Origin: Methylophaga thalassica MP
Lineage (GTDB): Bacteria; Pseudomonadota; Gammaproteobacteria; Nitrosococcales; Methylophagaceae
Assembly: GCF_000214595.1 (NCBI RefSeq)
Contig: NZ_AFIG01000003.1
Coordinates: 434,001 to 498,000, forward strand
Direction: 5' to 3'
Length of the DNA: 64,000 nucleotides
The position numbers were made by a program, and so were the translations under genes. Below the pieces are notes generated by a model. That model had not been told where the DNA came from. It made no database searches and saw only the letters and a program-made list of their open reading frames with translations. This document shows, one piece after another, positions 45,230-64,000 of the stretch; the stretch's first letter is position 1; each line of letters opens with the position of its first letter.

Positions 45230-45245
45230 GCTTTATTCATAACAA

Positions 45246-46675: not shown

Positions 46676-47117
46676 GGTTTTCAGTCCTCATAGTAAATGT
46701 GCCTGTTAATTCAGTCACATACAGAGGAATCTATTCCCTGCCTTTTTATCCGTCTATTCTTCCTAGAAATTAACACTTAAGTGGTACATGCCTATAAATA
46801 CGTGGTTTTTAGGTGTTTTCACCGTTAGATGACAACATTAATCAGCCCGCCCAGATTCTCACTGATCTCATCTAGTCTATGTAATGGCTTAGACTTAAGG
46901 CCGTTACTCCGTAGCCATACACGCTAAATAATATTGCGTTGAAAAAACCTGTATTTCTTCAAATGCTTGTTGCTTTACTATCTTAAAGCCAGTGTTTATC
47001 GCTTATTCACAGGACCTGTACTTCTTTTTGATTAAGCCTTCTTAATAATTGTTGCCGTGCAGTCATGTCGATTTAATAGCTTGTGTGTTTTTACACAAAA
47101 CTATTTGGAGACAAGAT
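46676..47117. other. 442-base divergent Amt-like/cupin intergenic region
   Basis: No convincing gene. It separates the divergent Amt-like and cupin genes. It contains a NarL-type inverted heptamer (46771-46786) and a small stem-loop TTGTGT/ACACAA (47081-47098) twenty bases before the cupin ATG. The cupin ribosome site TTTGGAG is at about 47104-47110. Confidence 0.6.
46771..46786. promoter_or_regulatory. NarL-type 7-2-7 inverted heptamer upstream of Amt-like gene
   Basis: On the minus strand the sequence is TACCACT-TA-AGTGTTA. The first half matches the NarL/NarP heptamer consensus TACYNMT fully, and the second matches its inverse AKNRGTA at six of seven positions, with the two-base spacer of a 7-2-7 site. 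It lies 96-111 bases upstream of the Amt-like start. The NarL-type regulator is encoded 0.7 kb away. Confidence 0.6.
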
Positions 47118-47459
47118 ATGAAATATATTCAACAAGCTGTAAAAGACCCACAACCATCAATGGGTGTTGACGGTGTAAACGCCACATTTGGCGATACAGT
47201 GATTTCAGACAGCAAAGATAAAACTATTTGTGCTGGCTTCTTTCATTTAAATAAAAGTGATAAACCGCTGGTTTATACCTACGATTATGAAGAAATGAAG
47301 TATGTGGCTGAAGGTGAATTTATTATCAGCGACGAATCAGGCAAACAAGTCCACGCCAAAGTGGGTGACGTATTGTATTTTGGCAATGGCGAAACCATTA
47401 CCTTCACCACACCGACCAGAGGTGTTGGTTTCTTTGTGGGTCAACGCAAACCACTCTAA
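47118..47459 (+). CDS. EutQ-like cupin protein
   Basis: A 113-residue single-domain cupin, similar to the C-terminal domain of EutQ. The pattern YDYEEMKYVAEGEFIISDESG, then AKVGDVLYFGNGETITF and GVGFFVGQ, is the EutQ-type jelly roll; the usual cupin metal histidines are not evident. The ATG at 47118 has GGAG upstream. It is flanked by the Amt-like gene and the two-component genes, so a role in amine metabolism is plausible but only by position. Confidence 0.78.
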   Translation: MKYIQQAVKDPQPSMGVDGVNATFGDTVISDSKDKTICAGFFHLNKSDKPLVYTYDYEEMKYVAEGEFIISDESGKQVHAKVGDVLYFGNGETITFTTPTRGVGFFVGQRKPL

Positions 47460-47486: not shown

Positions 47487-47517
47487 TCGGTAGGCTTATC
47501 GCCTACCGATTTTTTTA
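47487..47517 (+). terminator. Terminator of cupin gene
   Basis: Perfect 9-bp stem TCGGTAGGC (47487-47495) and GCCTACCGA (47501-47509) followed by eight T (47510-47517). It ends the cupin transcript just at the 3' end of the convergent response-regulator gene. Confidence 0.92.
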
Positions 47518-48153
47518 TCTATTCTGATGACGCCAGACAGCCGCTTCAAGTCGACTCGTTAAATTGAGTTTGCGTAGGATGTTTTTAATATGCACTTTCA
47601 CGGTGGTGTCGCTTATCCCCAGCTTTCTGGCAATATTTTTATTGTTCATCCCCTCAGCCAGACAATCCAGAATTTCTGTTTCTCTGTCAGTCAGACTCAC
47701 ATCTGATGCGGTCGTTCTGGTATCCGGCTCGATCAGCGCTTTTTTGAGTACTTCTGTCAGGCTATCCTGTAATACCGTCACACCTAAAGCTGCCTTCACC
47801 AGATTGGAACGTAAATCTTCCGGCTCCATGTCCTTGAGCAGATAACCATCCGCCCCTGATTTTAAGGCTTCCAGTAAATCTTCTTCAGCATCTGACACAG
47901 TGAGCACCACATAACGTGATTTCAAATCCATTTGTTTCAGCCTTCTCAGTGTTTCCAGGCCATCAATGCCCTTCATATTTAAGTCCAGCAACACTAAGTC
48001 CGGGTTTAACTGTTGAGCCAGTTCAATACCCTCCAGCCCGGATGCCGCTTCCCCCACCACCTCGAAGTTAGGTTCATCGGAAATAATCTGACCTACTCCC
48101 TTTCTGAATAAGGGGTGATCATCGATAATTAATATTCTTATTATAGTGTTCAT
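47515..48153 (-). CDS. NarL/FixJ-family response regulator
   Basis: A 212-residue regulator. The receiver domain has the acidic pair Asp11-Asp12 and the phospho-acceptor Asp57 in LLDLNMKG. A LuxR-type helix-turn-helix follows (SLTDRETEILDCLAEGMNNKNIARKLGISDTTVKVHIKNI, about 145-185). It matches NarL/NarP closely in length and layout. It starts 25 bases after the histidine-kinase gene ends and forms a pair with it. Candidate DNA sites of the NarL kind lie upstream of dmmD and of the Amt-like gene. Confidence 0.92.
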   Translation of the reverse strand: MNTIIRILIIDDHPLFRKGVGQIISDEPNFEVVGEAASGLEGIELAQQLNPDLVLLDLNMKGIDGLETLRRLKQMDLKSRYVVLTVSDAEEDLLEALKSGADGYLLKDMEPEDLRSNLVKAALGVTVLQDSLTEVLKKALIEPDTRTTASDVSLTDRETEILDCLAEGMNNKNIARKLGISDTTVKVHIKNILRKLNLTSRLEAAVWRHQNR

Positions 48154-48178
48154 TTCTCTCTCTTAATTTTATGACGAG

Positions 48179-50002
48179 TTATTCGGTCAGTTTGGGTACA
48201 AACTTCAGGCGTACCCGTGTCCCTCCGTAACGTCTGGCCATGACATCAATGTCTCCACCTAGAGTCTTAGCTCGTTCTTTCATGATTGCCTGCCCGTGAT
48301 GATCATAGGTGGAAGATAGTTTGCTCATCCCCACCCCATCGTCATCGATGGTTAACTCTAATTCCCCCTTGTTATTCACTAACATCAAAATTGACACATG
48401 CTTGGCGCCAGAATGGCGGACGATATTCGATAAGGCTTCGCGCACAACATGCAGAATATGAAACTCTTCATTGACCGTTAGCCGGCAATTCACCAAGCGA
48501 TTATCTAAAGTAATAGCGAGACTGGAGCGCTGTGAAAATTCATCAATAGTGGCCTGAATGGCATACCCCAGTCCGCGTAAGTCCATGTGAACCCGGAACG
48601 TGGTTAACAACTCTCTTAGCTCACGATAGGCATTATCTAAGCCTTCCCTGAGTTCGGTGGTCACTTCTCGCTGCTTATCATCAATCACATTGGATTGCAG
48701 TCTGGCCATCTGTATTTTCATAAATGACAATGACTGAGCCAGTGAATCATGCAACTCACGGGCAATCGCCGCACGCTCTTCGAGGATCGCCAGACGTCGC
48801 CCTTCTTCATCATGACTCTGAAACTTAGTGACCATACTGAGTAATTTCGCCGTGATTTCCAGCACTTTAATTTCAGCATCTTCAAGAAAGCGACCTTTTT
48901 GCATTTCTACCACCAGCACACCGACCTCATTGCGACTCCCCGAAAAACTGAGTCCCAAACACTCCACTTCTTCTGATTCGGCATTAAGCGACAGAAATGA
49001 GGCCGTGCCCGACATGATCAGTTCATCAAATACTTTGTCTGATATCGGGTTAGGCTCGTGATGTGAATAAATCACTTGTTCGGTAGAAATGACTGCGGCA
49101 TCGTCAGTATAAATAAGAGCGGTGTTGGTAAAGCCCATGGTTCGCTCCAGTGAATACAGCATCTTAAGTAATGTTTTTTCACTCAATACATCTTCAGATA
49201 CGGTTTCAATAAAGCGTAATAAAAAACTTTGGGCACGGGTTAATACACGAATGTGCTCACTGGTTCGGTGTGCCCAGGCGACTTCCGTCTCAAAGCTTTC
49301 CATTTTGGCGGATAACTCTGAAACCCGATGCTCCAGCAAAGCAAACTCATCATCCACATCCAGTTCACTGTTTTCACTATTTTTGGCGTAGATAAAGGCC
49401 AGAAGTCTATCCAGCCTTTCAACCAGGACCTTTCTGGTACTTAGCACCAACAGCAAAATACAGCTCAGCACAAACACCAGACTGACCGATTCCAGCAACG
49501 TTAATACGGCTCGTTTGATTTCGATATCTTTATGCAGGGCCTGTTCAAGGTTTTTATAGGCCGAGGCTAAACGGTCTGCTCCGCGTAACTGCACCGCTGC
49601 GCGAAGATTTAGTGTGGCCAATTGAGAAAAGTTGGCTTGTTCTGACTCTATCAGCCTGACCGCTTCGGCGATGTCATCATTCTTCTGACGTAACATCCAT
49701 AGCACCGCAGGATCTTGTGTATCGAGAAAATGGGACTGCATATTGTGGAACAGTCGTTGTGACTGCTGACTGTCCTTCAAATCAATATGAACTAATTGAT
49801 TTTCCCAATAATATTTCTGCTCGTTGACCTTGGCTAGAGCTATTTGCACAGAAGGCATATAATCCAAAAGGAAGAAAATCCCAGCCTGCATCAATGAGAT
49901 AGTCGCAGCAATACATATCAGCAAAACCACCCACTTTGTATAGAGTGTGCGTCGAGAAAAAATGCAGAAAATTTCGCTAAGACGCTGTTTTAATCTCATC
50001 AT
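48179..50002 (-). CDS. NarX/NarQ-like sensor histidine kinase
   Basis: A 607-residue membrane kinase. Helices near residues 24-46 and 165-187 enclose a periplasmic domain of about 115 residues. A HAMP-like linker and a GAF-like domain (about 255-390) follow. The HisKA_3 phospho-acceptor His418 lies in ARELHDSLAQ, and the catalytic ATPase has the DDDGVGM loop. The architecture is that of NarX, but I do not see the nitrate-binding P-box in the periplasmic part, so the signal is probably different. It pairs with the NarL-type regulator and is divergent from the PAS protein gene. Confidence 0.88.
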   Translation of the reverse strand: MMRLKQRLSEIFCIFSRRTLYTKWVVLLICIAATISLMQAGIFFLLDYMPSVQIALAKVNEQKYYWENQLVHIDLKDSQQSQRLFHNMQSHFLDTQDPAVLWMLRQKNDDIAEAVRLIESEQANFSQLATLNLRAAVQLRGADRLASAYKNLEQALHKDIEIKRAVLTLLESVSLVFVLSCILLLVLSTRKVLVERLDRLLAFIYAKNSENSELDVDDEFALLEHRVSELSAKMESFETEVAWAHRTSEHIRVLTRAQSFLLRFIETVSEDVLSEKTLLKMLYSLERTMGFTNTALIYTDDAAVISTEQVIYSHHEPNPISDKVFDELIMSGTASFLSLNAESEEVECLGLSFSGSRNEVGVLVVEMQKGRFLEDAEIKVLEITAKLLSMVTKFQSHDEEGRRLAILEERAAIARELHDSLAQSLSFMKIQMARLQSNVIDDKQREVTTELREGLDNAYRELRELLTTFRVHMDLRGLGYAIQATIDEFSQRSSLAITLDNRLVNCRLTVNEEFHILHVVREALSNIVRHSGAKHVSILMLVNNKGELELTIDDDGVGMSKLSSTYDHHGQAIMKERAKTLGGDIDVMARRYGGTRVRLKFVPKLTE

Positions 50003-50050
50003 GCTGCAAACTTTTCATCAAAAGCTGGGCAATAAAATAAGGATATAAAC

Positions 50051-51433
50051 ATGAATATCATCTTGTTCAGTCTGGTCATGTTAAGCAGTATTTTTGTACT
50101 GGTACTGGGTTTCTGGTGGGATAGCACCGCCCCATTTAAAGTACATATATCCACGCTCGCTGCAGTGCTTGCTATGTTTTTATCCGCCACATTAGCCATG
50201 ACGCTCTATCCTCGTTTAAAACGTCGTCCTCAACCTCAATCCCCCATCGCCTTTGATGATGTTATCTGGGGCCAGGATCTCTCCAGCAAGCTATCTACAC
50301 CTGCTGCTGTTATTGATGGTTATAACATTAAATTCGCCAACAATGCCTTTCTAAAAGAGCTTGGAATGAACGGCATGCGCGATATGATTACCGACCTACC
50401 GCTCACCAATCTGATTCACCCCAGCTCACACCAACAAATGACAGACTTTATCAGCCGTCAGCATAATCAACGTTCCAGCGAGACCATGATGTTACGCATG
50501 CTGTATGTGGATGGCACAACCATCCCGGCTCAGATATCACTGTCTCCTCTCAACTCTTTGCAGCAACATGGTCAGTTCTTGTTGCAGTTCACCACCACGT
50601 CATCATCCGAACCGACCTCAACCAAACTGGATGTGGATCACACCTACCGTTATCTTATCGATCGACTTGATCAAATCGTGTTTCAAATGAATGTTGATCA
50701 AAAAATCATTTTTCTCAATCCTGCCTGGGAGCGCATGCTCGACTACACGCCGCAGGAGTGCATGCAAAAAACCTTATTCCAATTCATTCACCCGGAAGAT
50801 CTGCCACTGGCAGAAGCTCGGATAAATGCCCTGACTGAAGGCAAACGCCACCATAGTCAGTTCGAATTACGACTCATTGCAAAAAATGGACGCTCGCAAT
50901 GGTTTGAAATGCGTGCTTCCACCACATCCCGACTCAAGAGTGAACGCAGCAGCGTGATGGGCACACTCACAGATATCAGTCGTATCAAGCAAACATCTGC
51001 CGACCTTAAAGCCAGTGCCCGACTCGCTAACGATATGATCATGCCGAATGTGCCTTGCATGTTATATCGCTGTAAAAATGATCGTAACTGGACTTTTGAC
51101 TATGTCAGCGACGGCTGCCTGGAAGTAACCGAATACCAGCCTTATGAAATTACCAACTCCCTCCATTTCAACTATATGCAGCTGATTTATCCTGATGATC
51201 AGCAGCGTGTTTGGGAATATGTCCAACAACAAGTTAATCAACAGCGCAGCTTTCAAATCATTTACCGCATCCAGACGCGTAGTAATAAAATCAAATGGGT
51301 CATGGAACGAGGTAAAGGCGTCTTTTCAGGAACAGATGAGTTATTAACTCTGGAAGGCATCATCATTGATATCAGTAGTGAGAATTATCAATCAATGATG
51401 GATGGACTGGAACAGATGACTTCAGAGCAATAA
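50051..51433 (+). CDS. Membrane protein with PAS domains but no output domain
   Basis: A 460-residue protein with two N-terminal helices (about 3-22 and 35-53) and then about three PAS domains. PAS1 is about 75-190, PAS2 about 205-325 (IVFQMNVDQKIIFLNPAWERML followed by a PAC motif WFEMRASTTSRLKSERSSVMGTLTDIS), and PAS3 about 340-445. No kinase, GGDEF, EAL or DNA-binding domain is attached. It is divergent from the histidine kinase with a 48-base gap, so it may be an accessory sensor for that kinase. Confidence 0.85.
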   Translation: MNIILFSLVMLSSIFVLVLGFWWDSTAPFKVHISTLAAVLAMFLSATLAMTLYPRLKRRPQPQSPIAFDDVIWGQDLSSKLSTPAAVIDGYNIKFANNAFLKELGMNGMRDMITDLPLTNLIHPSSHQQMTDFISRQHNQRSSETMMLRMLYVDGTTIPAQISLSPLNSLQQHGQFLLQFTTTSSSEPTSTKLDVDHTYRYLIDRLDQIVFQMNVDQKIIFLNPAWERMLDYTPQECMQKTLFQFIHPEDLPLAEARINALTEGKRHHSQFELRLIAKNGRSQWFEMRASTTSRLKSERSSVMGTLTDISRIKQTSADLKASARLANDMIMPNVPCMLYRCKNDRNWTFDYVSDGCLEVTEYQPYEITNSLHFNYMQLIYPDDQQRVWEYVQQQVNQQRSFQIIYRIQTRSNKIKWVMERGKGVFSGTDELLTLEGIIIDISSENYQSMMDGLEQMTSEQ

Positions 51434-51457
51434 CAGAGAGTCATCCTTGACCCTCTG
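51434..51457. terminator. Convergent stem-loop between PAS and porin genes
   Basis: CAGAGAGTCA (51434-51443) pairs with TGACCCTCTG (51448-51457), ten pairs with one mismatch and a four-base loop. It lies directly after the PAS gene stop and 18 bases from the porin stop. It has no T-run on either strand, so the call is tentative. Confidence 0.4.
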
Positions 51458-51475
51458 CTGCCGCTTATGAAACGC

Positions 51476-52258: not shown

Positions 52259-52298
52259 CTTCCCTTCCTTTAACTAAATGATTACCCCTAATCTAGTG

Positions 52299-53339
52299 TT
52301 ATTCCGGATGCGTTCCTTTTTCCAAAAAGGCGCCATCATCAAGTGGTTCGAGCCAATCCAGTACCGGTTGTTTAAAGCTATTCAAGCCTTTGTATTCCGC
52401 CAGATCCGGATGCAGGCTGCGTAATACGCGGTTTAAACGTTTTGCCCAACGTGGGTAGGTCGCCAAGTCTGCCAGACTCACCATATAAGTACGGATGCTG
52501 AAGGCAATCGCATTACTGCGTGGCAGTCTGAACAAGGCTTGCAGCTCTACCCGTAAAAAGACTTTGTCACCGGCATTTTCTTTGGTGGCCGACACGTTAT
52601 CAGTGCCCCAGACATCATAGGTTTCTGATGACGTATCGAGTCGTGGGTTAACACACATACGCCAGTTAGTCCGACGAACCGGGCTACCGTATTGCAGATG
52701 TAAGAGGTATTTCAACGCACGATCAAAAATACCCATTTCAGGCGCATGAGGCACAGGTGCGTGCCATTCTTTAAATGACATGCCGGCATCAAATGCGACC
52801 GACCAATCTGCCTGTCCGGTTACCATGCCGAGATCGGCATAGAGATCATTATCACGTTGATCCATGATGACCCAGTCACCCTGAACCTGGCGCATCACGT
52901 ATTCGAACGGCTCCATCGGTAAGGTGGATACGTCACCAAACACAAAGCGATCTTCAATACCCAGTGGTTTATTGACCCAGTGCCAGTTATCACCATCAAT
53001 GGTTAACTGAAACTCAGACGGATAACTTTCAGAAAGCGATGTCATCACTAATTCCAGTGTGTCCCATTGAGCATCCATCATGTGTGGTAAAGCGACACAG
53101 CGTGTGTGATCTTCACTTAATACAATGGCGCGCTCTTTACATTCGGCCACATAGTGTTCGTCGACATCAATCGGGTGTTCAAACACAGAACCAGGCGCAC
53201 CCGGGGTGTGCTGCTCAATGTTGACGCTATACATATACTCGTCTTCTTCAAACGGGTAAGGAAAACGGCGTACTGATTCCGGCGAGTTTCTAAACGTGAA
53301 ATCACCACGAAATGTTTCTTCATTAAATGCCATATTCAT
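52299..53339 (-). CDS. dmmC: Dimethylamine monooxygenase heme subunit DmmC (DUF3445)
   Basis: A 346-residue protein of the DUF3445 family, the PAS-like heme-binding oxidative N-demethylase subunit. Typical segments include NSPESVRRFPYPFEEDEYMYSV near the start, HMMDAQWDTLELV, and QALFRLPRSNAIAFSIRTYMVSL in the last third. In the characterised enzyme it binds O2 and oxidises dimethylamine to methylamine, releasing formaldehyde. It is the last of four dmm genes and starts ten bases after dmmB, preceded by a GAGGA ribosome site. Confidence 0.88.
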   Translation of the reverse strand: MNMAFNEETFRGDFTFRNSPESVRRFPYPFEEDEYMYSVNIEQHTPGAPGSVFEHPIDVDEHYVAECKERAIVLSEDHTRCVALPHMMDAQWDTLELVMTSLSESYPSEFQLTIDGDNWHWVNKPLGIEDRFVFGDVSTLPMEPFEYVMRQVQGDWVIMDQRDNDLYADLGMVTGQADWSVAFDAGMSFKEWHAPVPHAPEMGIFDRALKYLLHLQYGSPVRRTNWRMCVNPRLDTSSETYDVWGTDNVSATKENAGDKVFLRVELQALFRLPRSNAIAFSIRTYMVSLADLATYPRWAKRLNRVLRSLHPDLAEYKGLNSFKQPVLDWLEPLDDGAFLEKGTHPE

Positions 53340-53349
53340 CGTTTATTCC

Positions 53350-54303
53350 TCACAAATTGATGACCATGCGTGTACAGTTGGCACGCGAGACACAAGGTAA
53401 AATTTTCTTAGCAGCGACACGCTCAGCGTCGGACAGGTATTCATCGTGATGAACTAAGTCACCGTCACATTCGACGACTTCCACCTCACAACGACCACAG
53501 GCACCGCCACGGCACATATAAGGCGCATCGATACCCGCTTCCTCCAGCGCTTCCAGCATGCTGAGGTCACTAGGCACAACGACCTCGGTATTGGATTGCA
53601 ATAAGCTGACAGTGAATGGCGCACCACTAGCTGGTGCTAAGAACTTCTCACTATGTACAGACGTTTCTGGCCAGCCCAGCTCGGAAGCGATCAGTTCCAA
53701 ACCGTTTACCATTGGATCCGGACCGCACACATACACATGCGAACCCAGTGGCTGTTTGCTCAATAATTCAGTGATATTGAGTCGGCCGGTTTCATTTTCA
53801 GGATAGAAAAATGCTTTATCACCGCATAAAGCTTCAATTTCTTTGCGGAAAGCCGCATGTTCAGCACTGCGATAAGCATAATGTAATTCGTAGTCATGAC
53901 CGAGACGATTTAAATCGGTAATCTGTGACAAGAAAGGCGTAATACCAATACCACCGGCCACCAGAATGTGTTTTTTCGCCAGACGGTGAATCGAGAATAA
54001 ATTGGTAGGCATCGATATTTCTAATAAGGTGCCTGGTTCCACTTTCTCATGCATAAACACTGAACCACCACGTGATTTTTCCTGCTTACGCACCGCAATC
54101 TGATAGGCACTGTTATCGTTGGTTGGGCCCATTAAGGAATAGGCGTTACGATGGGTCCGGCCATCGATATCCATCGATACAACCACATGGCTGCCGCCAG
54201 AGAAATAAGGCAGTGGGCTGCCATCTTCGGCTACCATCGTAAAATGTTTGATTTGTTCAGCCACTTGCTCAACGGAAGTGACTTTGACTTTTAAAGCACT
54301 CAT
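53350..54303 (-). CDS. dmmB: Dimethylamine monooxygenase reductase subunit DmmB
   Basis: A 317-residue flavin and [2Fe-2S] reductase of the phthalate dioxygenase reductase type. It has a flavin-binding barrel (RNAYSLMGP), a nucleotide-binding domain (AGGIGITPFLSQI) and a C-terminal plant-type ferredoxin domain with ligands in CRGGACGRC (Cys264, Cys269, Cys272) and Cys303. It delivers electrons from NAD(P)H to the heme subunit. The ATG overlaps the dmmA stop by four bases. Confidence 0.9.
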   Translation of the reverse strand: MSALKVKVTSVEQVAEQIKHFTMVAEDGSPLPYFSGGSHVVVSMDIDGRTHRNAYSLMGPTNDNSAYQIAVRKQEKSRGGSVFMHEKVEPGTLLEISMPTNLFSIHRLAKKHILVAGGIGITPFLSQITDLNRLGHDYELHYAYRSAEHAAFRKEIEALCGDKAFFYPENETGRLNITELLSKQPLGSHVYVCGPDPMVNGLELIASELGWPETSVHSEKFLAPASGAPFTVSLLQSNTEVVVPSDLSMLEALEEAGIDAPYMCRGGACGRCEVEVVECDGDLVHHDEYLSDAERVAAKKILPCVSRANCTRMVINL

Positions 54304-54908
54304 GGGTAAACCTCCTGTGCTGGTGGAATCTCGCCGGGTGTTTCACCATCGACCATAAAGCCCATATAGGCACCCCAATGACGGGAGAAATGATCACGAA
54401 CGAATAAATTCAGGCCACAGTTCACACATTGATGAATGTTGTGGTGAACGTCCTCATTAATCGTTTCACAATGCACGCAGAACACACGTCTGGCTAAAGA
54501 ACCTGTCTGTTCTTTAAAAATATTCCGGTCATCGACGCCATATTCAGTCAGCAACTTGGCGACTGGCCAAATCAGTTTTTCTTCACCAGCAACGTAGAAC
54601 TGTGTGCCCATATAGCAATTGTCCAGCTCAGTGTTCAACGCCGCCGTTAAGGCTTCCTGTGAGTCGCAGACAGTAATTGACTCACCTGACATCTCTTCAA
54701 CGATGCTCACATACTTGTTACTTGCTGCATCATCAGCCAGATAAAACACGGATACAGGTTGTTTTGGCACCATTTGCTGAAATAACTTCAGCAAGGCTTT
54801 ACCACCACCTTCACCGCCAACGATCACCACATGATGTGTCGCTTTTTTTTGCCAGACCAAGGTGCCGTAAATAGGTTTGGTTGTAATTGAGTAACCTTTT
54901 TCCATCAT
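54300..54908 (-). CDS. dmmA: Dimethylamine monooxygenase subunit DmmA
   Basis: A 202-residue protein matching the DmmA family. An N-terminal half with Rossmann-like patterns (HHVVIVGGEGGGKALLKLF) precedes a small C-terminal cysteine-rich domain with CVHC and CVNC pairs (Cys144, Cys147, Cys161, Cys164), probably a zinc site. It is a small accessory subunit of the heme-dependent dimethylamine demethylase complex. It begins twelve bases after dmmD and overlaps dmmB by four bases, so the set dmmDABC is one unit. Confidence 0.85.
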   Translation of the reverse strand: MMEKGYSITTKPIYGTLVWQKKATHHVVIVGGEGGGKALLKLFQQMVPKQPVSVFYLADDAASNKYVSIVEEMSGESITVCDSQEALTAALNTELDNCYMGTQFYVAGEEKLIWPVAKLLTEYGVDDRNIFKEQTGSLARRVFCVHCETINEDVHHNIHQCVNCGLNLFVRDHFSRHWGAYMGFMVDGETPGEIPPAQEVYP

Positions 54909-54920
54909 CTATTCCTCAAT

Positions 54921-56054
54921 TTACTCAGGGTGAGTGCGAACACGCATAGGATCATAAAAAGGCATCTTGACGATGGTCGCTTTGACCTCATCACCGTCGG
55001 TCACTGTTACTGTGGTGCCAAGTTGGCTGTATTCCGGTTTGATATGTGCCATCGCCAGTGACTTCATCAGATATTGGCTGTAGCTGGAGCTGGTCACCAC
55101 ACCGACTTCTTTGCCATCAATGAATAATTTAGAACCGACCTCTACCGCTTGCTTTGAGCGACATTCCAGACCGATTTGTTTAAAGCGTTCTCTGCCTTTT
55201 AACTTCAGCACTGCTTCTTTACCGATGTAATCACCGGGTTTATCTTCATCGACACACCAGTCCATATTGACTTCCCACGGTGTGGTATCGCCTTCAGGCA
55301 TATCAAATGGGAAGAACAGTAAGGCGGCTTCAACGCGTGTCAGATCCAGTGAGTCCCATGATGCCGGGATGCAGCCATAGGGCTGACCTTTTTCCAGAAT
55401 CATGTCCCACAGGTACACAGCATCAGCCGCGGAACAATAGACTTCGTAGCCGCGTTCACCGGAATAACCACCGCGAGCGAGGATCACTTCACGACCGAAT
55501 AAGGTCGTCTTGATATGTTTGAAATAAGGTAATCCGGCGAGGTCGAAATCCAGTTCCGGATCCAGAATATCGATAGAACGAGGGCCCTGCAGCGACAGGA
55601 TATGAACATCATAATCCTGTTCAACTGTGACATCCTCACCTTTAGCGAGTTCGGCTAAGGTTTGTTGTGTGGCGCCACTGCCATGAGATAAACGGTAATG
55701 TTCTTTATCATCACAAATGACCATGATGTCATCGACCAGCGCACCTTCTTCATTAACTTCACCGGCAAGTCGGGAAGTACCTGGTTCGAGCTTAGTGACA
55801 TCAATCGTCACCAGCTTGTCGATAATTTTTAATGCGGCTGGCCCAGATACATTAACAATATTGAGACCAGACACATCATAAAGACCTGCCCGGGTACGGA
55901 CCGCAACAACCTCATCATTCACATCCGAATGGTAGCTCCATGGAATGGGCATGCCATTCCATGTTTCGCCATCCAGTGTTGACCCAAGTTCTTTATGGCG
56001 AACATTGAGTACTGAGTTCCGTGTGGTAGTTTCTTTGGGCAGTGGATTATTCAT
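54921..56054 (-). CDS. dmmD: GcvT-like folate subunit DmmD
   Basis: A 377-residue protein of the aminomethyltransferase (GcvT) family, similar to the tetrahydrofolate-binding subunits of demethylases. The typical segments GLYDVSGLNIVNVSGPAALKIIDKL and ARGGYSGERGYEVYC are present. In the dimethylamine enzyme it is expected to trap the formaldehyde released by the heme subunit as methylene-tetrahydrofolate, feeding the one-carbon pool. It is the first gene of the dmm operon. A NarL-type 7-2-7 site lies 83-98 bases upstream of its start. Confidence 0.87.
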   Translation of the reverse strand: MNNPLPKETTTRNSVLNVRHKELGSTLDGETWNGMPIPWSYHSDVNDEVVAVRTRAGLYDVSGLNIVNVSGPAALKIIDKLVTIDVTKLEPGTSRLAGEVNEEGALVDDIMVICDDKEHYRLSHGSGATQQTLAELAKGEDVTVEQDYDVHILSLQGPRSIDILDPELDFDLAGLPYFKHIKTTLFGREVILARGGYSGERGYEVYCSAADAVYLWDMILEKGQPYGCIPASWDSLDLTRVEAALLFFPFDMPEGDTTPWEVNMDWCVDEDKPGDYIGKEAVLKLKGRERFKQIGLECRSKQAVEVGSKLFIDGKEVGVVTSSSYSQYLMKSLAMAHIKPEYSQLGTTVTVTDGDEVKATIVKMPFYDPMRVRTHPE

Positions 56055-56136
56055 GGTCTAACTCCGGTTACATAGAACGAATTCAATGTAAAAAACTTAC
56101 CGAAATCAGCCGCATATAAAAATTCTCATGATGGAG

Positions 56137-56152
56137 TACTCCTTAATGGGTA
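56137..56152. promoter_or_regulatory. Perfect NarL-type 7-2-7 operator upstream of dmmD
   Basis: TACTCCT-TA-ATGGGTA: both halves match the NarL/NarP heptamer consensus TACYNMT and its inverse AKNRGTA, with a two-base spacer. On the minus strand it reads TACCCAT-TA-AGGAGTA, and TACCCAT is a classical NarL heptamer. It shares the central TA with the site in front of the Amt-like gene. It lies 83-98 bases upstream of dmmD in a gap of 168 bases. The first half overlaps a 10-base palindrome GGAGTACTCC. Confidence 0.65.
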
Positions 56153-56222
56153 AAAACCATCTGATTTTTTATGCTCTACCTTTTATAATCCATTGATAAG
56201 AAAGAAAATAATTAAGAAAAAT

Positions 56223-56696
56223 TTACTCTGCGTGCAAAGACTTTAGTGTCTGAATCATCTCAATAATCACTAATGCCGCTTCACGGCCTTTGATAATCAT
56301 GCGATCTTTTGCTTGTTGCTCATCTTCTGTGGTCAGAATCGCATTGGCCAGCGGAATTCCTGTGCCAATCTGAATATCAGTACAGGCACGTGCTGACTCA
56401 TTGGCCACAATCTCAAAATGATAGGTTTCACCACGAATGATGCAGCCTAATGCGACCAGACCATCACAATTACCTTTTAATGCCAGTTCATGTAAAACCA
56501 TCGGAATTTCCAATGCACCCGGCACAGACAATACCTGAATGTCCCGTTCCTGAACGTTGCTGGCTTTTAACTGGTCAACACAGGCATTTAACAGTGCCGT
56601 GCAAATCTCAGAGTTAAACCGCGAGACAACGATACCTACTCGAAAGCCATTGCCGTCAATATCGTCGCGAACACCTGCCCCATGTATATCTGCCAA
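56223..56696 (-). CDS. ribH: 6,7-dimethyl-8-ribityllumazine synthase
   Basis: A 157-residue enzyme making the lumazine precursor of riboflavin. The signature segments VVSRFN, GALEIP and IRGETYHFE (catalytic His93) are present, and the LTTE segment and C-terminal helices match the family. It is somewhat divergent in the middle (RACTDIQIGTGIPLANA). It stands alone, without ribA, ribB, ribD or ribE, between etfA and dmmD. Both flanking systems need flavins: TMADH and DmmB use flavin, and ETF uses FAD. It could be an extra copy dedicated to supplying flavin during growth on methylated amines. Confidence 0.9.
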   Translation of the reverse strand: MADIHGAGVRDDIDGNGFRVGIVVSRFNSEICTALLNACVDQLKASNVQERDIQVLSVPGALEIPMVLHELALKGNCDGLVALGCIIRGETYHFEIVANESARACTDIQIGTGIPLANAILTTEDEQQAKDRMIIKGREAALVIIEMIQTLKSLHAE

Positions 56697-56721
56697 ATCT
56701 GTTTCCTCATATAAATAAATA

Positions 56722-56752
56722 GCATCGGGTAAGTCAGAGTCTTACCCGATGC
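56722..56752 (-). terminator. Strong stem-loop between etfA and ribH
   Basis: Perfect 12-bp stem GCATCGGGTAAG (56722-56733) and CTTACCCGATGC (56741-56752) with a seven-base loop, followed on the minus strand by TATTTATTTAT. It lies 14 bases after the etfA stop and 26 bases before the ribH start. It is probably a partial terminator that sets a lower ribH level. Confidence 0.75.
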
Positions 56753-56766
56753 CGAATAAAATAACG

Positions 56767-57726
56767 TTATTCAAAGTGTGTGCGCAATTCTTCTTCAATA
56801 TCGAAGATATCCGCCACAATGCCGTACTTGGCAATATTAAATATCGATGCGCCCGGATCGGTGTTCACCGCCACGATACTAGGCACATGTTTCATCCCTG
56901 CCATATGTTGAATTGAGCCGGAAATTCCCATCGCCACATAAAGCTTGCAAGCACCGACTACCTTGCCAGATTGCCCTACCTGACGTGACTTTGGCAACCA
57001 GCCTGAGTCAGCAATCGGACGCGAGCAGCATAATGTTGCTCCCGCCAGCTCAGATAATTCACGGAAGGTATCCACATTATTTTCTTCTGCGATACCGCGG
57101 CCGATAGACATAATAAAGTCCACACCCGTAATATCAATATCATCTGCGCCTTCCGGTTCAACATAACGCAAATTTTGACTACGACTGGTCAGCGAAGTCA
57201 TATCCAAAGATGAAATCGCCGGTGACCCTGCGTCTTCCGCTTGTTTAAACACACTTGGACGAATCGTCAGCAGCACACAATCTTTGCCGGGAAAATCCAC
57301 TTCCACATTCACTTTTTGATTGTAGGCAGCACGGGTTGCAACTAGATCGTCACCATCATAAGCCAGCCCGAACACATCACTGGCAAAACCATAATTGCCT
57401 TTACGAGCCAGCGTTGGTGCGTAACCCAGGCTATCCACAGAATGCGGCATCAATACCACAGATGGCGCGTATTGTTCCATCAATTCAGAGACAACGGCTT
57501 CCTGAATATCGGCATCAAAATCTTCTGTTGCCGTTTTCACCGCCACGACTCCATCAACCCCTGCGAGCGATAATGCACTGGTGTAGTTGTCGGCGTTTTG
57601 CCCTGTCACCGCCACAATGACCTTGTCATCCGCCTGACGTAATTCCTGGGCAGCTGAGATCACTTCCAGAGAATTCGGGCGTAATTCATTCTGGCGGGTT
57701 TCCGCCATCACCAAAATCGTTTTCAT
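56767..57726 (-). CDS. etfA: Electron transfer flavoprotein alpha subunit
   Basis: A 319-residue protein. The N-terminal half is a nucleotide-binding-like fold (KTILVMAE), and the C-terminal FAD domain contains CSRPIADSGWLPKSRQVGQ, MGISGSIQHMAG and VAVNTDPGASIFNIA. With EtfB it accepts electrons from trimethylamine dehydrogenase, as in Methylophilus, where the two proteins form a well-known complex. It overlaps the etfB end by one base. Confidence 0.93.
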   Translation of the reverse strand: MKTILVMAETRQNELRPNSLEVISAAQELRQADDKVIVAVTGQNADNYTSALSLAGVDGVVAVKTATEDFDADIQEAVVSELMEQYAPSVVLMPHSVDSLGYAPTLARKGNYGFASDVFGLAYDGDDLVATRAAYNQKVNVEVDFPGKDCVLLTIRPSVFKQAEDAGSPAISSLDMTSLTSRSQNLRYVEPEGADDIDITGVDFIMSIGRGIAEENNVDTFRELSELAGATLCCSRPIADSGWLPKSRQVGQSGKVVGACKLYVAMGISGSIQHMAGMKHVPSIVAVNTDPGASIFNIAKYGIVADIFDIEEELRTHFE

Positions 57727-58523
57727 TAGAGTTCTCCTCTGTATTCTTTAATTATCTCAGCCAGTTTTGCAGCCTGTTCTGCGGGTGTACCCTCAATCAT
57801 GGTCGCCATACCTTTTTCAGGAATGTACATACGACGTACCCGTGCAAAACTCGCATCGGCACCGACATCCTCGGCACTTAATCCCAAATCACTCAGGCTG
57901 ATTTCTTCGATGGGTTTGGCAGCTGCTTGTTTGATACCGCGTAAAGAGGCATAACGCGGTGTATTAATCCCCAGTTGAATAGTCAGCACCGCAGGGCAGC
58001 TGATCTCTACTTCCTGTGCCATCCCACCTTCCAGCTCACGACTGACCACGGCTTTATTGCTGCCGGGTGTATAGTCCAATCCAGCCACCACGGCGGCATG
58101 AGGCCAGTTCAGATAAGACGATAAAGAAATACCAGTCGAGGCATTTGCATCATCTGACGACTGCACTCCGGCAAAAATCATGTCCGGTTTTTCTTGTTCA
58201 GCGACCGCGGCCAGAATGCGGCCCACGGTAATCGAGTCCGACCCTTCCATCTCATCAGACCACACGCGTATTGCTCTGTCTGCGCCTTTAGCCAGACATT
58301 TACGCAGACTTTCCTCAACCCGATCGGGACCAACAGACACCACCACCACTTCCACTTCTGAATCCGAGGCTTCTTTAATGTTCATGGCCTCTTCCAGGGA
58401 AAAATCGTCCCATTCATTCAGGTCATAAAGCAGAAAGTCCTCATCGACGTCCAATTGGTCGTCACGAATTTCAAAGTCATCGTCAAGTGAAGCGACTTCT
58501 TTGACTGCAACTAAAATTTTCAT
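57726..58523 (-). CDS. etfB: Electron transfer flavoprotein beta subunit
   Basis: A 265-residue protein of the EtfB family, with the AMP-binding type fold (KILVAVKEV at the start, IFAGVQSSDDANASTGISLSSYL in the middle). It partners EtfA and lies directly upstream of it, the usual order. A good AGGAG ribosome site precedes the ATG. It follows the LRV protein gene after 47 bases and belongs to the same probable operon as tmd. Confidence 0.93.
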   Translation of the reverse strand: MKILVAVKEVASLDDDFEIRDDQLDVDEDFLLYDLNEWDDFSLEEAMNIKEASDSEVEVVVVSVGPDRVEESLRKCLAKGADRAIRVWSDEMEGSDSITVGRILAAVAEQEKPDMIFAGVQSSDDANASTGISLSSYLNWPHAAVVAGLDYTPGSNKAVVSRELEGGMAQEVEISCPAVLTIQLGINTPRYASLRGIKQAAAKPIEEISLSDLGLSAEDVGADASFARVRRMYIPEKGMATMIEGTPAEQAAKLAEIIKEYRGEL

Positions 58524-58570
58524 GCTATTTCTCCTAAATTGCTGTCTACATCAGCTTTATTTGCAGTGAG

Positions 58571-59929
58571 TTACTGCTGGTATTGCCTGGAAAACCAGGT
58601 AAAAAGGCTGAACCGAACCGCCGGGTCCGGATCGTCATATAAGGTCCATTTGTCATCAGCACTAAGTGCTCTGCTTTGGATAAGCATCATGCGATTCAGG
58701 TAATACGGATCATCCAGCAGAGGCAGTAAGGTCTGACGAGTCGCCATATTGTTGAGAATGACCGCCCGCCTGACATCAGCACTGATTGAATAGCTCAAGC
58801 GCTGTAGTACTTTCTGCGGTGTTTTTGGGTTGGCAGCGACACCACCCAGCACGTCGATATCGTCCATCTCGGCAAGGATGATTAAGGTGCTGGCCGGCGT
58901 ATTGGGCTGGTTTGCTACCGCAGCACGTACCCAGACTTCTTGATCATTAGCCAGTTGGCTCAGTAATGCCGAATTGGTTTTCGGATTTCTGGCCACAGCA
59001 CGGCGAACCTCTTTATGCTCATCCTGAGCTAAGCTGTACAACTGTGATTCTGTGAGTTTTGGGTTGAGTGCCAACCATTGTCTGACCCAGTGATCCGTAT
59101 CTGCCAGCAAACAATTCATCATCTCTGGCGTCAGGTCTTCTCTGGCGGCTACCACGCGTCTGACATATTCCGACTGATCTTCAACCAGCTCTTCTAAAAC
59201 CCATACCGGCAGATTTTTATGACTCGCTGCGGCTCGCCTGACGGAATAATCCTTATCCAAAGCCAGACGGGCGCTGAGTCGTTTATCGATATGTGGATTG
59301 GTCGCTAAATGACGCAGGATCAGACTGCTTTCCAGTTTCGCGGCAATAGTAAAAATAGCGGTCGGACACGCTTTATGAGCAACAACAGCGGCCTGAACAA
59401 ACTCATTACCACGCGCATATAACGTCATTAATAAATCACCCAATGTCGCTGGATGACTGGCAAGTTCAGCATCAAATTGATCAGCAAACTTTTCTGCAAC
59501 CAAGGCTAAAGTCTTGCTATCCGCATTCGGATTTTTCACCACAGCTCTCACCAAATCTGTTGCCGTAGTGGTATGTAAAATCTGCCACAACACATCCGCA
59601 CTGGTGTGAGCATGTTTGGCAATCAGTGTAATAAAGCTGATGTCCACTTCATCACGGTATAAATTGCTTAAGGTCTGGGTTTGAGTCGCCGGGTTTTTAT
59701 CCAGGCGTAAACGCACGGCATCATCTTCAAGGCCAGCCAGCAAAGCCAGTACATCGGCAGGAGTATGCTGCCAGCGTGCCAGTTTAAGTACATCACGACG
59801 CTGTGCCGTTATCAGCTCTGCCAGCAATTTTTTGTCATGAAAATCTGCCAGACCATACACCGCAGCCGCGCTGTAAATATCGCCACTGTCGAGCGCGACT
59901 GAGATTAACTCAGCCGCAGAGCCCGGCAT
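58571..59929 (-). CDS. Leucine-rich-variant (LRV/HEAT-like) repeat protein
   Basis: A protein of about 452 residues made of some 14-16 repeats of about 24 residues with the pattern L-x2-L-A-x-D-x4-V-R-x2-V-A-x-N-P-x-T-P-x3-L. Examples are VRRAVARNPKTNSALLSQLA and VRAAVANQPNTPASTLIIL. This is the leucine-rich-variant type, related to HEAT repeats, and it forms a curved solenoid for protein binding. No N-terminal Cys cluster (present in the Azotobacter LRV protein) is seen. The ATG at 59929 follows the upstream stop by seven bases; in-frame ATGs further upstream (such as 59956) would overlap it. Its place between the Fe-S oxidoreductase and etfB suggests a chaperone or assembly role. Confidence 0.72.
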   Translation of the reverse strand: MPGSAAELISVALDSGDIYSAAAVYGLADFHDKKLLAELITAQRRDVLKLARWQHTPADVLALLAGLEDDAVRLRLDKNPATQTQTLSNLYRDEVDISFITLIAKHAHTSADVLWQILHTTTATDLVRAVVKNPNADSKTLALVAEKFADQFDAELASHPATLGDLLMTLYARGNEFVQAAVVAHKACPTAIFTIAAKLESSLILRHLATNPHIDKRLSARLALDKDYSVRRAAASHKNLPVWVLEELVEDQSEYVRRVVAAREDLTPEMMNCLLADTDHWVRQWLALNPKLTESQLYSLAQDEHKEVRRAVARNPKTNSALLSQLANDQEVWVRAAVANQPNTPASTLIILAEMDDIDVLGGVAANPKTPQKVLQRLSYSISADVRRAVILNNMATRQTLLPLLDDPYYLNRMMLIQSRALSADDKWTLYDDPDPAVRFSLFTWFSRQYQQ

Positions 59930-59936
59930 CGAATCA

Positions 59937-62069
59937 TTAAGCTGCGTCTGCATCTTCATCAACAGACTCATCGTCAAATTCAACACACTCAGTGATCAGC
60001 TCAATCAGCTCTTTCACCTCAAACTTGCCTTCATAACCGGCAGTTTTACGTGCGTCTTCAAACATGGTGAGATCTTTTGGACACGACACGATAAACACGT
60101 CCAGATCCTCAATCTCACCAGCTTCATGTATCCGGTTTTCAGAAGGTTTTTGGATGCCGACCGGATCAGGAATCCAGATACGCCCACCACCGGCACCACA
60201 GCAGAATGAGTTATCACGATTACGTGCCATTTCCACCAGATCACAACCTAGCATTTTGATAATGTCACGAGGGGCGTCATAGCCTTTGTTATAACGGCCT
60301 AAGTGGCATGAATCATGGAAAGTCACCGTCAGATCCAGCTGTTTTTTCAGCTTCAATTTGCCTTGTTCTAACAACTGTTTAATCACCGTGGTGTAGTGGT
60401 TAATTTCAAACTCACCACCAAAATCCGGATATTCATTACGGATGGTGTTAAATGAATGTGGATCGGTGGTCACAATCGATTTGAAATCACATTGTTCTAA
60501 AGTGCTGATATTTGAGGTTGCCAAAAATTCATACAGCCCCTCCTCACCGACACGGCGGATATCATTACCGGCATTCATTTCGGCTTCGTATAACAAACCA
60601 AAATCCACACCAGCCTGACGCATTAATCTGGCAAACGATTTCGTCACTACCTGATTACGTGGGTCGAAAGAGGCGTAGTCGCCGACAAACCACATCACAT
60701 CCACCGGCTCTTTACGGGCATCTTTAATCGCGAAAGGTAAATCCTTGGTCCATTTCGCCCGTTTACGTTTGGACTCGCCCATCGAGTTACCGTTTTTATG
60801 CACGGATTGCAGCGTTTTTTGCAGAATCGGCTCCATATTGCCTTCATCCACTAATTTGCGACGCATCTGCACAATAATCGGCACATGCTCAACCGCCACC
60901 GGGCAAATTTCTACACAGGCCAGACAGGTACGACATGACCACAGCGTTTCCATAAACACCTGACCGATATCTTTACCATGCACATCCAACTCGGCTTCGT
61001 CCGGTAACTCTTTTTTCTGTAAGGTGTTATTGGCAAACTCACGCAATGACAGAATCACATCACGTGGTGATAAAGGTGCGCCTACCGCATTGGCCGGACA
61101 GGCTTCATGGCAGCGACCACATTTGGTACAGGCATCCAGGTTCAGTAAGTTTTTCCAGGTCAGATCGGTAATGGTTTTAACCCCAATCTCTTCCTGCTCT
61201 TCTGGCACCATCGGTAAACGACGACCGACCATCGGGTCACGAAACATCAATGACGCAGATGCCGTAAAGATATGTTTCACTTTGGTAAAAGGAATCAGCG
61301 CCACAAAGGTCAAGGCAATAAAGCCATGGAACCACCAGAGTCCGGTACGGAAATGCCCTGCCGCTTCCGGCCCCATCCCCATTCCATGTAAGGCATTGGC
61401 AATCAGTGCGCCCATCGGTGACCACCAGCGGTAGTCCCAGACAGTAGGATCATTCATCAGCCAAATCAGACGCGAGGCTTCAAGCAAAAAGCCCGTGATC
61501 AGAATGATGATAAAGCCCCATAAAAATGCCCAGTCTTCACGACGATAAGCACTGCGGTCGTAGTCAGGATCGGTAGGTTCACGATCGGGACGTTTGTAAT
61601 CCAGTTTAGGTAATTTCAGCCATTTTCGGCGATACATCATGTATAAAACGCCAGCGATAACGGCTGTTCCGGCAATGTCGAGTACCAATGAAAACCACAG
61701 GTAAAAGTCGCCATACCAGAATTTAAAGCCAAATAATGGCTCTAAAATATCGTATTCAAGTGTGATGGTGGCTGTGCCGAGAAACAGCAAAACAAAGCCA
61801 AAAAATATTCCTGCATGCGCTTTGCCAGCCGCCCTGTCACGACGTTTAATCGTACGGTGCGTCAGCATGGTTTTCAGCATCTCACCGAATCTCGCCAGAA
61901 ACTCGCCCCAGGCTGCATCAGGTTTACCACGACGGTATTTTCTTACCTGCACGTAACAACCATAAAGAAATACAGCGATTGCGGAATAACCAAACGCATA
62001 AAAAAGGTAAATGGATGAGGTCTGAAAACCTTGAAATAAAATCCTAGTAATCTCTTGTGCTTCGTTCAT
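59937..62069 (-). CDS. Membrane Fe-S oxidoreductase, EtfD/DgcB type
   Basis: A 710-residue protein. The first 270 residues contain five or six helices with a NarI/cytochrome-b-like layout. Then come two [4Fe-4S] motifs, CTKCGRCHEACP (Cys314, 317, 320, 324) and CRTCLACVEICP (Cys379, 382, 385, 389), and a C-terminal CCG domain pair ending in FCCGAGGG. The family includes EtfD of mycobacteria and DgcB of dimethylglycine catabolism, which pass electrons from ETF or flavin dehydrogenases to the quinone pool. Here it is the likely acceptor for ETF reduced by trimethylamine dehydrogenase, replacing a classical ETF-quinone oxidoreductase. Confidence 0.85.
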   Translation of the reverse strand: MNEAQEITRILFQGFQTSSIYLFYAFGYSAIAVFLYGCYVQVRKYRRGKPDAAWGEFLARFGEMLKTMLTHRTIKRRDRAAGKAHAGIFFGFVLLFLGTATITLEYDILEPLFGFKFWYGDFYLWFSLVLDIAGTAVIAGVLYMMYRRKWLKLPKLDYKRPDREPTDPDYDRSAYRREDWAFLWGFIIILITGFLLEASRLIWLMNDPTVWDYRWWSPMGALIANALHGMGMGPEAAGHFRTGLWWFHGFIALTFVALIPFTKVKHIFTASASLMFRDPMVGRRLPMVPEEQEEIGVKTITDLTWKNLLNLDACTKCGRCHEACPANAVGAPLSPRDVILSLREFANNTLQKKELPDEAELDVHGKDIGQVFMETLWSCRTCLACVEICPVAVEHVPIIVQMRRKLVDEGNMEPILQKTLQSVHKNGNSMGESKRKRAKWTKDLPFAIKDARKEPVDVMWFVGDYASFDPRNQVVTKSFARLMRQAGVDFGLLYEAEMNAGNDIRRVGEEGLYEFLATSNISTLEQCDFKSIVTTDPHSFNTIRNEYPDFGGEFEINHYTTVIKQLLEQGKLKLKKQLDLTVTFHDSCHLGRYNKGYDAPRDIIKMLGCDLVEMARNRDNSFCCGAGGGRIWIPDPVGIQKPSENRIHEAGEIEDLDVFIVSCPKDLTMFEDARKTAGYEGKFEVKELIELITECVEFDDESVDEDADAA

Positions 62070-62118
62070 GACACACCTGCAAGCTTTTTTGGAATAGGAA
62101 TAAGTGATTGCTGAGGTT

Positions 62119-62159: not shown

Positions 62160-62162
62160 GGT

Positions 62163-64000
<1,838 letters not shown>

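What the first reader, a model, noticed from the sequence alone, without database searches (positions are those of the whole stretch)
56137..56152. Perfect NarL-type inverted heptamer pair upstream of dmmD
TACTCCT-TA-ATGGGTA fulfils the NarL/NarP 7-2-7 consensus in both halves. A NarX/NarL-type two-component system lies 4-8 kb away, but the kinase has no visible nitrate P-box and there are no nitrate respiration genes in the window. The pair may therefore have been recruited to regulate methylated-amine use, a role I do not know for this regulator family.
Basis: partly seen in the sequence, partly recalled or inferred. Interest (0 to 1): 0.75.

Follow-up and report, generated by a model that had tools for sequence, protein, structure and literature searches.

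The report
NarL-like switch for methylated-amine genes
A short DNA sequence that looks like a nitrate-response box is part of a larger conserved promoter element that marks genes for eating methylated amines in several groups of methylotrophic bacteria, and it is probably read by a neighbouring signalling system that databases label as the nitrate regulator.

Summary
The box is real: TACTCCTTAATGGGTA at 56137-56152 fits TACYYMT-NN-AKRRGTA exactly and is the only perfect copy in the 3.26 Mb genome, but that number is chance level (reversed-pattern control also 1). Conservation is what matters. All 16 dmmD-bearing genomes among 24 of the genus carry upstream a 34-bp element (two overlapping NarL-like inverted repeats) at a fixed distance from a -10 hexamer; the perfect 7-2-7 is in only 3 of 16. 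A model trained on dmmD sites alone gave 35 further hits, 33 of them before TMA dehydrogenase, folE2, permease, cupin, globin or FMO genes. The column-shuffled control gave 28, best E 0.016. The linked PAS-kinase-regulator module forms one clade in Gamma-, Beta- and Alphaproteobacterial methylotrophs, lacks the nitrate P-box, and has no narG beside it; outside Methylophaga 19 of 26 of its loci show the element, both Hyphomicrobium loci do not. Recruitment to amine use is well supported, but binding is untested and three genomes keep the element without this regulator. Listed papers gave no such regulator; the known one, TmaR, is AraC-type.

The parts
56137..56152 (-). Site I: perfect NarL-type 7-2-7 (the finding); TACCCATTAAGGAGTA on the dmmD strand, centre about -57.5 of the predicted promoter
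   Evidence: the corresponding block is at 16 of 16 dmmD promoters
56123..56138 (-). Site II: second, imperfect 7-2-7 (TACTCCATCATGAGAA, 2 mismatches), overlapping site I by 2 bp; centre about -43.5, over the expected -35 position
56119..56152 (-). Whole 34-bp element TACCCATTAAGGAGTACTCCATCATGAGAATTTT
   Evidence: Mean pairwise identity 0.775 in the element against 0.271 in the 80 bp upstream, 13 distinct promoters
56094..56099 (-). Predicted -10 hexamer TAAGTT, 53 bp from the start of the element
   Evidence: TAnnnT at this offset in 32 of 39 elements, at most 5 of 39 at any other offset tested
54921..56054 (-). dmmD (GCV_T aminomethyltransferase family), first gene behind the element
   Evidence: Pfam GCV_T
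54300..54908 (-). dmmA
   Evidence: DmmA-like Pfam and NCBIfam NF041259 over cut-off
53350..54303 (-). dmmB (ferredoxin reductase type)
   Evidence: Pfam; name by position
52299..53339 (-). dmmC (HODM alpha-like)
   Evidence: Pfam PF11927; name by position
47515..48153 (-). NarL-like response regulator, probable reader of the element
   Evidence: NF007935 287 bits, cut-off 250; amine clade 100/98
48179..50002 (-). NarX-like sensor kinase without P-box
   Evidence: NF007896 217.7 bits, cut-off 578 not met; P-box absent
50051..51433 (+). Divergent double-PAS protein with no other Pfam domain found; constant partner of the kinase-regulator pair
   Evidence: Pfam PAS; PAS gene at 32 of 33 loci of the amine clade, the missing one cut by a contig end
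47019..47052 (+). Second copy of the element, before the cupin gene
   Evidence: Plain consensus 2 mismatches at 47019-47034; 31.5 bits with a matrix that includes it; not found by R1 here, but R1 found it before the cupin of G018 and G019
47072..47077 (+). Predicted -10 (TTTAAT) of the cupin gene, same 53-bp offset
47118..47459 (+). EutQ-like cupin, 113 aa
   Evidence: Pfam EutQ and Cupin_3 over cut-off

Best explanation
The box is site I of a double activator element. A three-gene module beside it (PAS protein, NarX-like kinase without a nitrate pocket, NarL-like regulator) senses a signal of methylated-amine use. The phosphorylated regulator binds as dimers to two overlapping 7-2-7-like sites centred near -57.5 and -43.5 and activates a promoter that has a -10 but no good -35. 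The same element switches on dmmDABC, trimethylamine dehydrogenase, a permease, a cupin and extra folate and flavin synthesis genes. Shown by computation: the element, its fixed promoter geometry, the genes behind it, and its association with the module. Inferred: direct binding, activation rather than repression, phosphorylation dependence, and the nature of the signal.
For: Element at 16 of 16 dmmD promoters. Identity 0.775 in the element against 0.271 upstream. TAnnnT at one offset in 32 of 39 elements. R1, trained on dmmD sites only: 33 of 35 other hits before amine or cofactor genes; 23 other hits at E<=0.1 against 5 for the column-shuffled model. 17 of 23 genus genomes hit at E<=0.1 against 1 of 35 relatives outside the genus. 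5 of 5 Methylophilaceae genomes hit at the module's locus, and there the best match of the rival regulator RR2 is the linked regulator itself. Amine-clade loci outside Methylophaga 19 of 26 with element, other loci 0 of 47. P-box in 0 of 32 PAS loci against 39 of 48 others; narG 0 of 32 against 11 of 48; amine-cluster genes 29 of 32 against 0 of 48. Regulator clade 100/98. Half-sites match TACYYMT at means of 5.3 to 6.2 of 7 positions, random 2.6. Recognition helix TVKVHIKN against NarL TVKVHVKH. E. coli NarL activates from single sites at about -42.5 to -44.5 (passages).
Against: No binding or expression data. G022 (same species), G005 and G001 keep the element but have no orthologue of this regulator. 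Seven of 26 amine-clade loci outside Methylophaga, both Hyphomicrobium loci among them, show no element at 14 bits, and whole-genome R1 searches found nothing in three amine-clade genomes (Hyphomicrobium, Pseudogemmobacter, PBA) and only E>0.2 in a fourth (Ferrovum). Site II departs from the NarL consensus. The plain consensus is not enriched in the genome. R1 hits between E 0.02 and 0.1 lie in the range that the shuffled model also reaches. Many promoters and loci compared are close relatives, so counts are not independent.
Confidence: 0.76

Rival explanations
1. The element is real but in Methylophaga is bound mainly by another regulator, most likely the second, distant NarL-like regulator (RR2) beside tmm/tdm, with the linked module acting on something else or sharing the site.
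For: RR2 is present in G022, G005 and G001, which lack the linked regulator yet keep the dmmD element; RR2 keeps the K, V and K of the recognition helix (TVKVYVK); variant elements stand before tdm and tmm.
Against: RR2 lies far from NarL in the tree and its own elements differ (GAGGATT for GAGAATT at tmm).
Confidence: 0.12
2. It is an ordinary nitrate-responsive NarXL pair that ties amine use to nitrate.
For: The NCBIfam NarL equivalog score is over cut-off; the box meets the NarL consensus.
Against: No P-box in any of 32 PAS-type kinases while 39 of 48 other loci have it; kinase far under the NarX and NarQ cut-offs; narG over cut-off in only 2 of 24 genus genomes, each with a different NarL beside a narG copy; napA over cut-off in 0 of 24. 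The narG-linked NarL of G007 scores below the model's cut-off (223.8), so the label is not decisive.
Confidence: 0.04
3. The sites are repressor sites covering the -35 region, or the conserved block serves another promoter function such as an unusual sigma factor.
For: Site II sits over the -35 position and no -35 consensus was found on the dmmD strand.
Against: Absence of a -35 with inverted repeats at -43.5 and -57.5 is a usual layout of an activated promoter (general knowledge); NarL sites at about -42.5 to -44.5 activate in E. coli (passages).
Confidence: 0.06
4. Chance match to a degenerate consensus.
For: The genome-wide count is at control level.
Against: Conservation and fixed geometry across genera and two classes.
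Confidence: 0.01

Closest known systems
E. coli NarX-NarL and its 7-2-7 sites
   Same: Regulator family, K/V/K of the recognition helix (roles recalled), half-site sequence, single site near -43.5 as at napF and yeaR (passage)
   Different: Kinase lacks the P-box; PAS partner protein; two overlapping sites; targets are amine and cofactor genes; no narG or napA over cut-off in this genome
TmaR and TmoR of Ruegeria pomeroyi (PMC13390433; abstract, Results and Discussion read)
   Same: Coordinate control of tmm, tdm, dmmDABC and the methylamine genes
   Different: TmaR is AraC-type; a term search of the paper found no mention of Methylophaga, NarL or two-component
NarXL of Methylophaga nitratireducenticrescens (PMC11526790; passages)
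   Same: Same genus, NarL family
   Different: In G007, probably this species, the narG-linked NarL is 46% identical to the window regulator with helix TVKIHVQG; the paper ties its NarXL to denitrification genes
FlhSR and MxaYX of Paracoccus (recalled, not read)
   Same: Two-component control of C1 oxidation
   Different: Not compared here

Membership tests
NarL response regulator (NCBIfam NF007935) | Score over 250 bits | tested here: met
   287.2 bits; but the narG-linked NarL of G007 scores 223.8 and a Thiobacillus NarL 321.3, so the model does not separate function
NarL response regulator (NCBIfam NF007935) | Groups with nitrate-linked NarL in a tree | tested here: not met
   Separate amine clade, 34 rows, 100/98; E. 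coli NarL and the 47 other loci outside (midpoint root, some long branches)
NarL response regulator (NCBIfam NF007935) | Nitrate respiration genes to control | tested here: not met
   No narG or napA over cut-off in G000; expression not testable
NarX/NarQ nitrate sensor kinase | P-box with G-x-x-R (PMC8199190 passages) | tested here: not met
   Absent in 28 of 28 aligned kinases and by pattern in 32 of 32 PAS loci; the same pattern finds it in E. coli NarX
NarX/NarQ nitrate sensor kinase | Equivalog score | tested here: not met
   217.7 of 578 (NarX) and 215.7 of 553 (NarQ); the narG-linked kinase of G007 also fails (246.8 and 295.9)
NarX/NarQ nitrate sensor kinase | Helical periplasmic sensor, GAF-like, HisKA_3 and ATPase domain order | tested here: inconclusive
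   HisKA_3 and HATPase_c; model helical at 19-204 with a mixed domain at about 275-370, pLDDT 76.5, pTM 0.38; no NarX or NarQ sensor among the 50 fold hits shown
NarL 7-2-7 DNA site | TACYYMT-NN-AKRRGTA | tested here: met
   Perfect in the window; perfect in only 3 of 16 orthologous promoters
NarL 7-2-7 DNA site | Bound by NarL-type regulator | not testable with these tools
   Needs binding assay
TmaR regulon | AraC-type regulator controls dmm and mgd | not tested
   No TmaR homologue search was made

The most novel reading that the evidence does not exclude
Methylotrophs of three proteobacterial classes share a dedicated methylated-amine signalling module, PAS protein plus kinase plus NarL-type regulator, which arose from nitrate NarXL by losing the nitrate pocket and gaining a PAS partner. 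In at least two of the classes it drives a whole regulon, catabolism plus transport plus folate and flavin supply, through one double 7-2-7 element. In Methylophaga a second, distantly related PAS-kinase-regulator set works the same way on the TMAO branch (tmm, tdm).
Probability: 0.45. Interest if true: 0.72.

Novelty: new variant of a known kind. Interest (0 to 1): 0.62.

Why it matters
How methylotrophs outside the roseobacters switch on methylated-amine use is open as far as my searches show; the one published master regulator I found (TmaR) is of another family. This gives a promoter element, a target list and a candidate regulator testable in culturable strains such as Methylophaga sulfidovorans, Methylovorus or Methylophilus methylotrophus. 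It also warns that automatic annotation as NarL can mislabel a methylamine regulator, and it suggests co-control of folate and flavin synthesis genes with the enzymes that need them.

Tried and rejected
Plain NarL-consensus counts in the genome: no excess. Riboswitch or other RNA family at 44000-64000: none at gathering threshold. Sigma-70 scan of 55900-56800: no promoter on the dmmD strand by consensus. One of the 14 places with up to 1 mismatch (C1:521715-521730) lies about 50 bp before the ORF at C1:520423-521664 beside genes that look like N-methylglutamate genes, but neither R1 nor the broad matrix supports it, so I do not count it; the other 12 were not annotated. Fold search with the kinase gave general kinase cores in the 50 rows shown. 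A first look at dmmD upstreams missed minus-strand loci because they were not turned; corrected. R1 hits not explained: G010:C18 (inside or near a ribosomal protein gene) and G018:C8:29386, the reverse strand of the cupin element. R2 hits were not annotated; one, G019:C5:620484, lies some 3 kb from the amine module. Literature: nine searches on this question and one on NarL sites. In the listings (8 to 20 titles of up to 1,011 matches) I saw no paper on NarL-type or two-component control of dmm or TMA dehydrogenase genes. I did not open the Paracoccus aminophilus (PMC3925955, PMC4543880) or M. thiooxydans (PMC6548844) papers that were listed; most subscription papers are not held.

Full report
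THE OBSERVATION. The 16-mer TACTCCTTAATGGGTA is at 56137-56152 and fits TACYYMT-NN-AKRRGTA (recalled consensus) perfectly. In the 64-kb window 0.01 such matches are expected. In the 3,261,960-base genome it is the only perfect place, but the reversed control pattern also has one; at up to one mismatch there are 14 places against 32 for the control. Abundance is therefore not evidence. A second 7-2-7 with two mismatches overlaps it at 56123-56138.

SETTING. On the minus strand the element precedes dmmD, dmmA, dmmB and dmmC (54921-56054 down to 52299). Then follow a Gcw_chp protein, a divergent PAS protein (50051-51433), a NarX-like kinase (48179-50002), a NarL-like regulator (47515-48153) and an ammonium-transporter-family gene. 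ribH, ETF genes, an Fe-S protein and an OYE-type protein that I take for trimethylamine dehydrogenase (TMADH below; name by family and context, not by a curated model) lie upstream. The genus is Methylophaga by inference: the G021 contig has the length of a Methylophaga sulfidovorans DSM 11578 contig whose regulator is 94% identical to the window's.

FOOTPRINT. dmmD orthologues (67-100%) occur in 16 of the 24 genomes searched. All 16 carry the same element 92 to 139 bases before the start of the dmmD match. The strict 7-2-7 is perfect in 3 of 16, has one mismatch in 2, two in 9 and more in 2. Over 13 distinct promoters mean pairwise identity is 0.775 in the 34-bp element, 0.271 in the 80 bp upstream, 0.391 in the spacer and 0.782 in the -10 hexamer. 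The four half-sites match TACYYMT at means of 6.0, 6.2, 5.4 and 5.3 of 7 (random 2.6). In 39 elements (15 Methylophaga dmmD, 19 from loci of other genera, 3 cupin, 1 folE2, 1 TMADH) TAnnnT stands at offset 53 in 32 of 39, and at no other offset from 30 to 74 in more than 5. Some of these promoters are near-identical, so they are not 39 independent cases. With the -10 hexamer at -12 to -7, site II is centred at -43.5 and site I at -57.5, and there is no consensus -35. E. coli napF and yeaR have NarL sites at -40 to -49 and -38 to -47, and an ogt derivative at -44.5 (passages of PMC4549865 and PMC9314961).

GENOME SCANS. Model R1 was built from the 13 dmmD elements only. In 24 genomes it gave 51 hits at E<=1: the 16 dmmD sites and 35 others. 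By the gene behind them the 35 are: folE2 14, TMADH 8 (two of them, in G000 and G021, only when read on the opposite strand), permease-type transporter 5, bacterial globin 3, EutQ-like cupin 2, FMO/Tmm 1, a reverse-strand duplicate of a cupin site 1, off-target in a ribosomal gene 1. The families were checked with Pfam on one member each; the rest go by BLAST to those or by the start of the protein. At E<=0.1 there are 23 others, neither of the two unexplained hits among them. The column-shuffled control R2 gave 28 hits, best E 0.016, 5 at E<=0.1 (not annotated); 12 of the 35 other R1 hits lie below that best E. In the window's own genome R1 at E<=10 gives three places: dmmD, folE2 and TMADH; it misses the cupin copy. 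Among 58 relatives 17 of 23 in the genus and 1 of 35 outside hit at E<=0.1. In 11 further genomes, all 5 Methylophilaceae hit at E 8.9e-9 to 5.5e-3 at the dmm or module loci. The other 6, of which 4 belong to the amine clade (Hyphomicrobium, Pseudogemmobacter, PBA, Ferrovum) and 2 are controls, had nothing below E 0.2.

THE MODULE. An orthologue of the regulator (68-100%) is in 12 of 24 genomes, all with dmmD, on the same contig in 11 of 12. G012 has PAS and kinase genes at a contig edge. G022 and G005 have the dmmD element but no orthologue in the genome, and G001 has none either, its dmm contig ending after dmmC. 32 of the 80 have the PAS gene next to the pair; these 32 have no P-box kinase, no narG within the fetched flank, and in 29 of 32 amine-cluster genes (dmm, TMADH, its Fe-S partner, etfA, gmaS or mgd) at 40% identity or more. 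Of the other 48, 39 have a P-box kinase, 11 have narG and none has those genes. The 9 with neither PAS nor P-box have no kinase ORF or a short one in the locus (8), or are L173 (Pseudogemmobacter), which falls in the amine clade and whose contig ends just before the kinase. In the tree of 89 regulators the amine clade (34 rows including L173 and the window) has support 100/98; E. coli NarL and NarP and the narG-linked NarL of G007 and G015 are outside (midpoint root, and the places of several long rows are unsure). It spans Methylophaga, Methylobacillus, Novimethylophilus, Methylovorus, Methylophilus, Methylotenera, Hyphomicrobium, Pseudogemmobacter, and at its base Burkholderiaceae PBA, Cupriavidus, Ferrovum and one other betaproteobacterial row. 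With a matrix made from Methylophaga dmmD sites alone, 19 of 26 amine-clade loci outside Methylophaga hold the element at 14 bits or more and 0 of the 47 others do (maximum 11.5). The seven misses are L157, L161, L168, L173, L180, L181 and L189. The element is thus shown in Gamma- and Betaproteobacteria, not in Alpha.

REGULATOR AND KINASE. Best solved relative of the regulator is E. coli NarL (1a04, E 1.6e-66); the helix reads TVKVHIKN against TVKVHVKH, so K188, V189 and K192 (base contacts recalled, Maris 2002 not read) are kept. The kinase matches solved structures only from residue 388 on. Its region behind the first membrane helix has none of the P-box motif A-I-N-x-A-G-S-L-R-M-Q-S-Y-R-L (PMC8199190 passages) in 28 of 28 aligned kinases. 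The AlphaFold model is helical through the sensor (pLDDT 76.5, pTM 0.38).

NO NITRATE LINK. narG passes its cut-off in 2 of 24 genus genomes, G007 and G015; in both, a narG copy stands next to another NarL (46-48% identical). napA passes in 0 of 24. Weak hits to both families, an 891-aa one at C1:50186 among them, may be assimilatory enzymes; I did not pursue them. NCBIfam would call the amine regulators NarL (275-287 bits in the window and three others) but scores the narG-linked G007 NarL at 223.8, under the cut-off of 250.

SECOND SYSTEM. In G000 a second PAS, kinase and regulator set lies between tdm and tmm (names by family and context; C3, locus L081). Related but different elements stand before tdm in 7 of 8 loci looked at (none was seen in the first 520 bases of the G005 locus) and before tmm in 5 of 5 loci where the start was found, out of 9 tried (found by a simple pattern and by eye). 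This regulator is far from the first in the tree but keeps K, V and K. It could explain why G022, G005 and G001 keep the dmmD element; this is inference. In 5 Methylophilaceae genomes its best match (41-42%) is the linked regulator itself, so there it is not available as reader of the element.

LITERATURE. The regulator known for this pathway is AraC-type TmaR in Ruegeria pomeroyi (PMC13390433: abstract, Results and Discussion read; term search). Among the papers listed by my searches I saw none on a NarL-type regulator of amine genes.

VERDICT.

Noticed in passing
G000:C3:176000-194000 (locus L081, 6101-12898): A second PAS-kinase-regulator set between a tdm-like and an FMO/tmm gene, with variant elements before both.
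   Followed up: partly
window 47118-47459: A 113-aa EutQ-like cupin between the regulator and the ammonium transporter gene has its own copy of the element; its function in amine use is unknown.
   Followed up: partly
G000:C1:505976-508011 (outside the window): folE2 and ribBA stand behind an element copy, and ribH lies before dmmD: folate and flavin synthesis genes seem to be co-controlled with the enzymes that use them.
   Followed up: yes
G022 against the window, 45311-52258: G022, of the same species, lacks the Gcw, PAS, kinase, regulator and amt block beside dmmC; the next genes (43413-45229) follow directly. ETF genes before ribH are missing too.
   Followed up: partly
NCBIfam NF007935: The NarL equivalog model accepts the amine-clade regulators tried (4 of 4) and rejects a narG-linked NarL of Methylophaga.
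   Followed up: yes
G018 and G012, loci L127 and L128: A bacterial globin gene stands behind an element copy, next to a helix-turn-helix regulator gene.
   Followed up: no
G019:C5:635745 and 635972: Two element copies 227 bp apart before folE2.
   Followed up: no
L185 (Betaproteobacteria MAG) and L180, L181, L189: More distant module copies with larger PAS proteins (641-820 aa); three of the four lie beside amine-cluster genes, L185 with an element at 26 bits.
   Followed up: no
G005:C1:1627478-1628458: The tdm-like match in G005 has an open frame of only 337 aa where others have 775, so the gene may be broken there.
   Followed up: no
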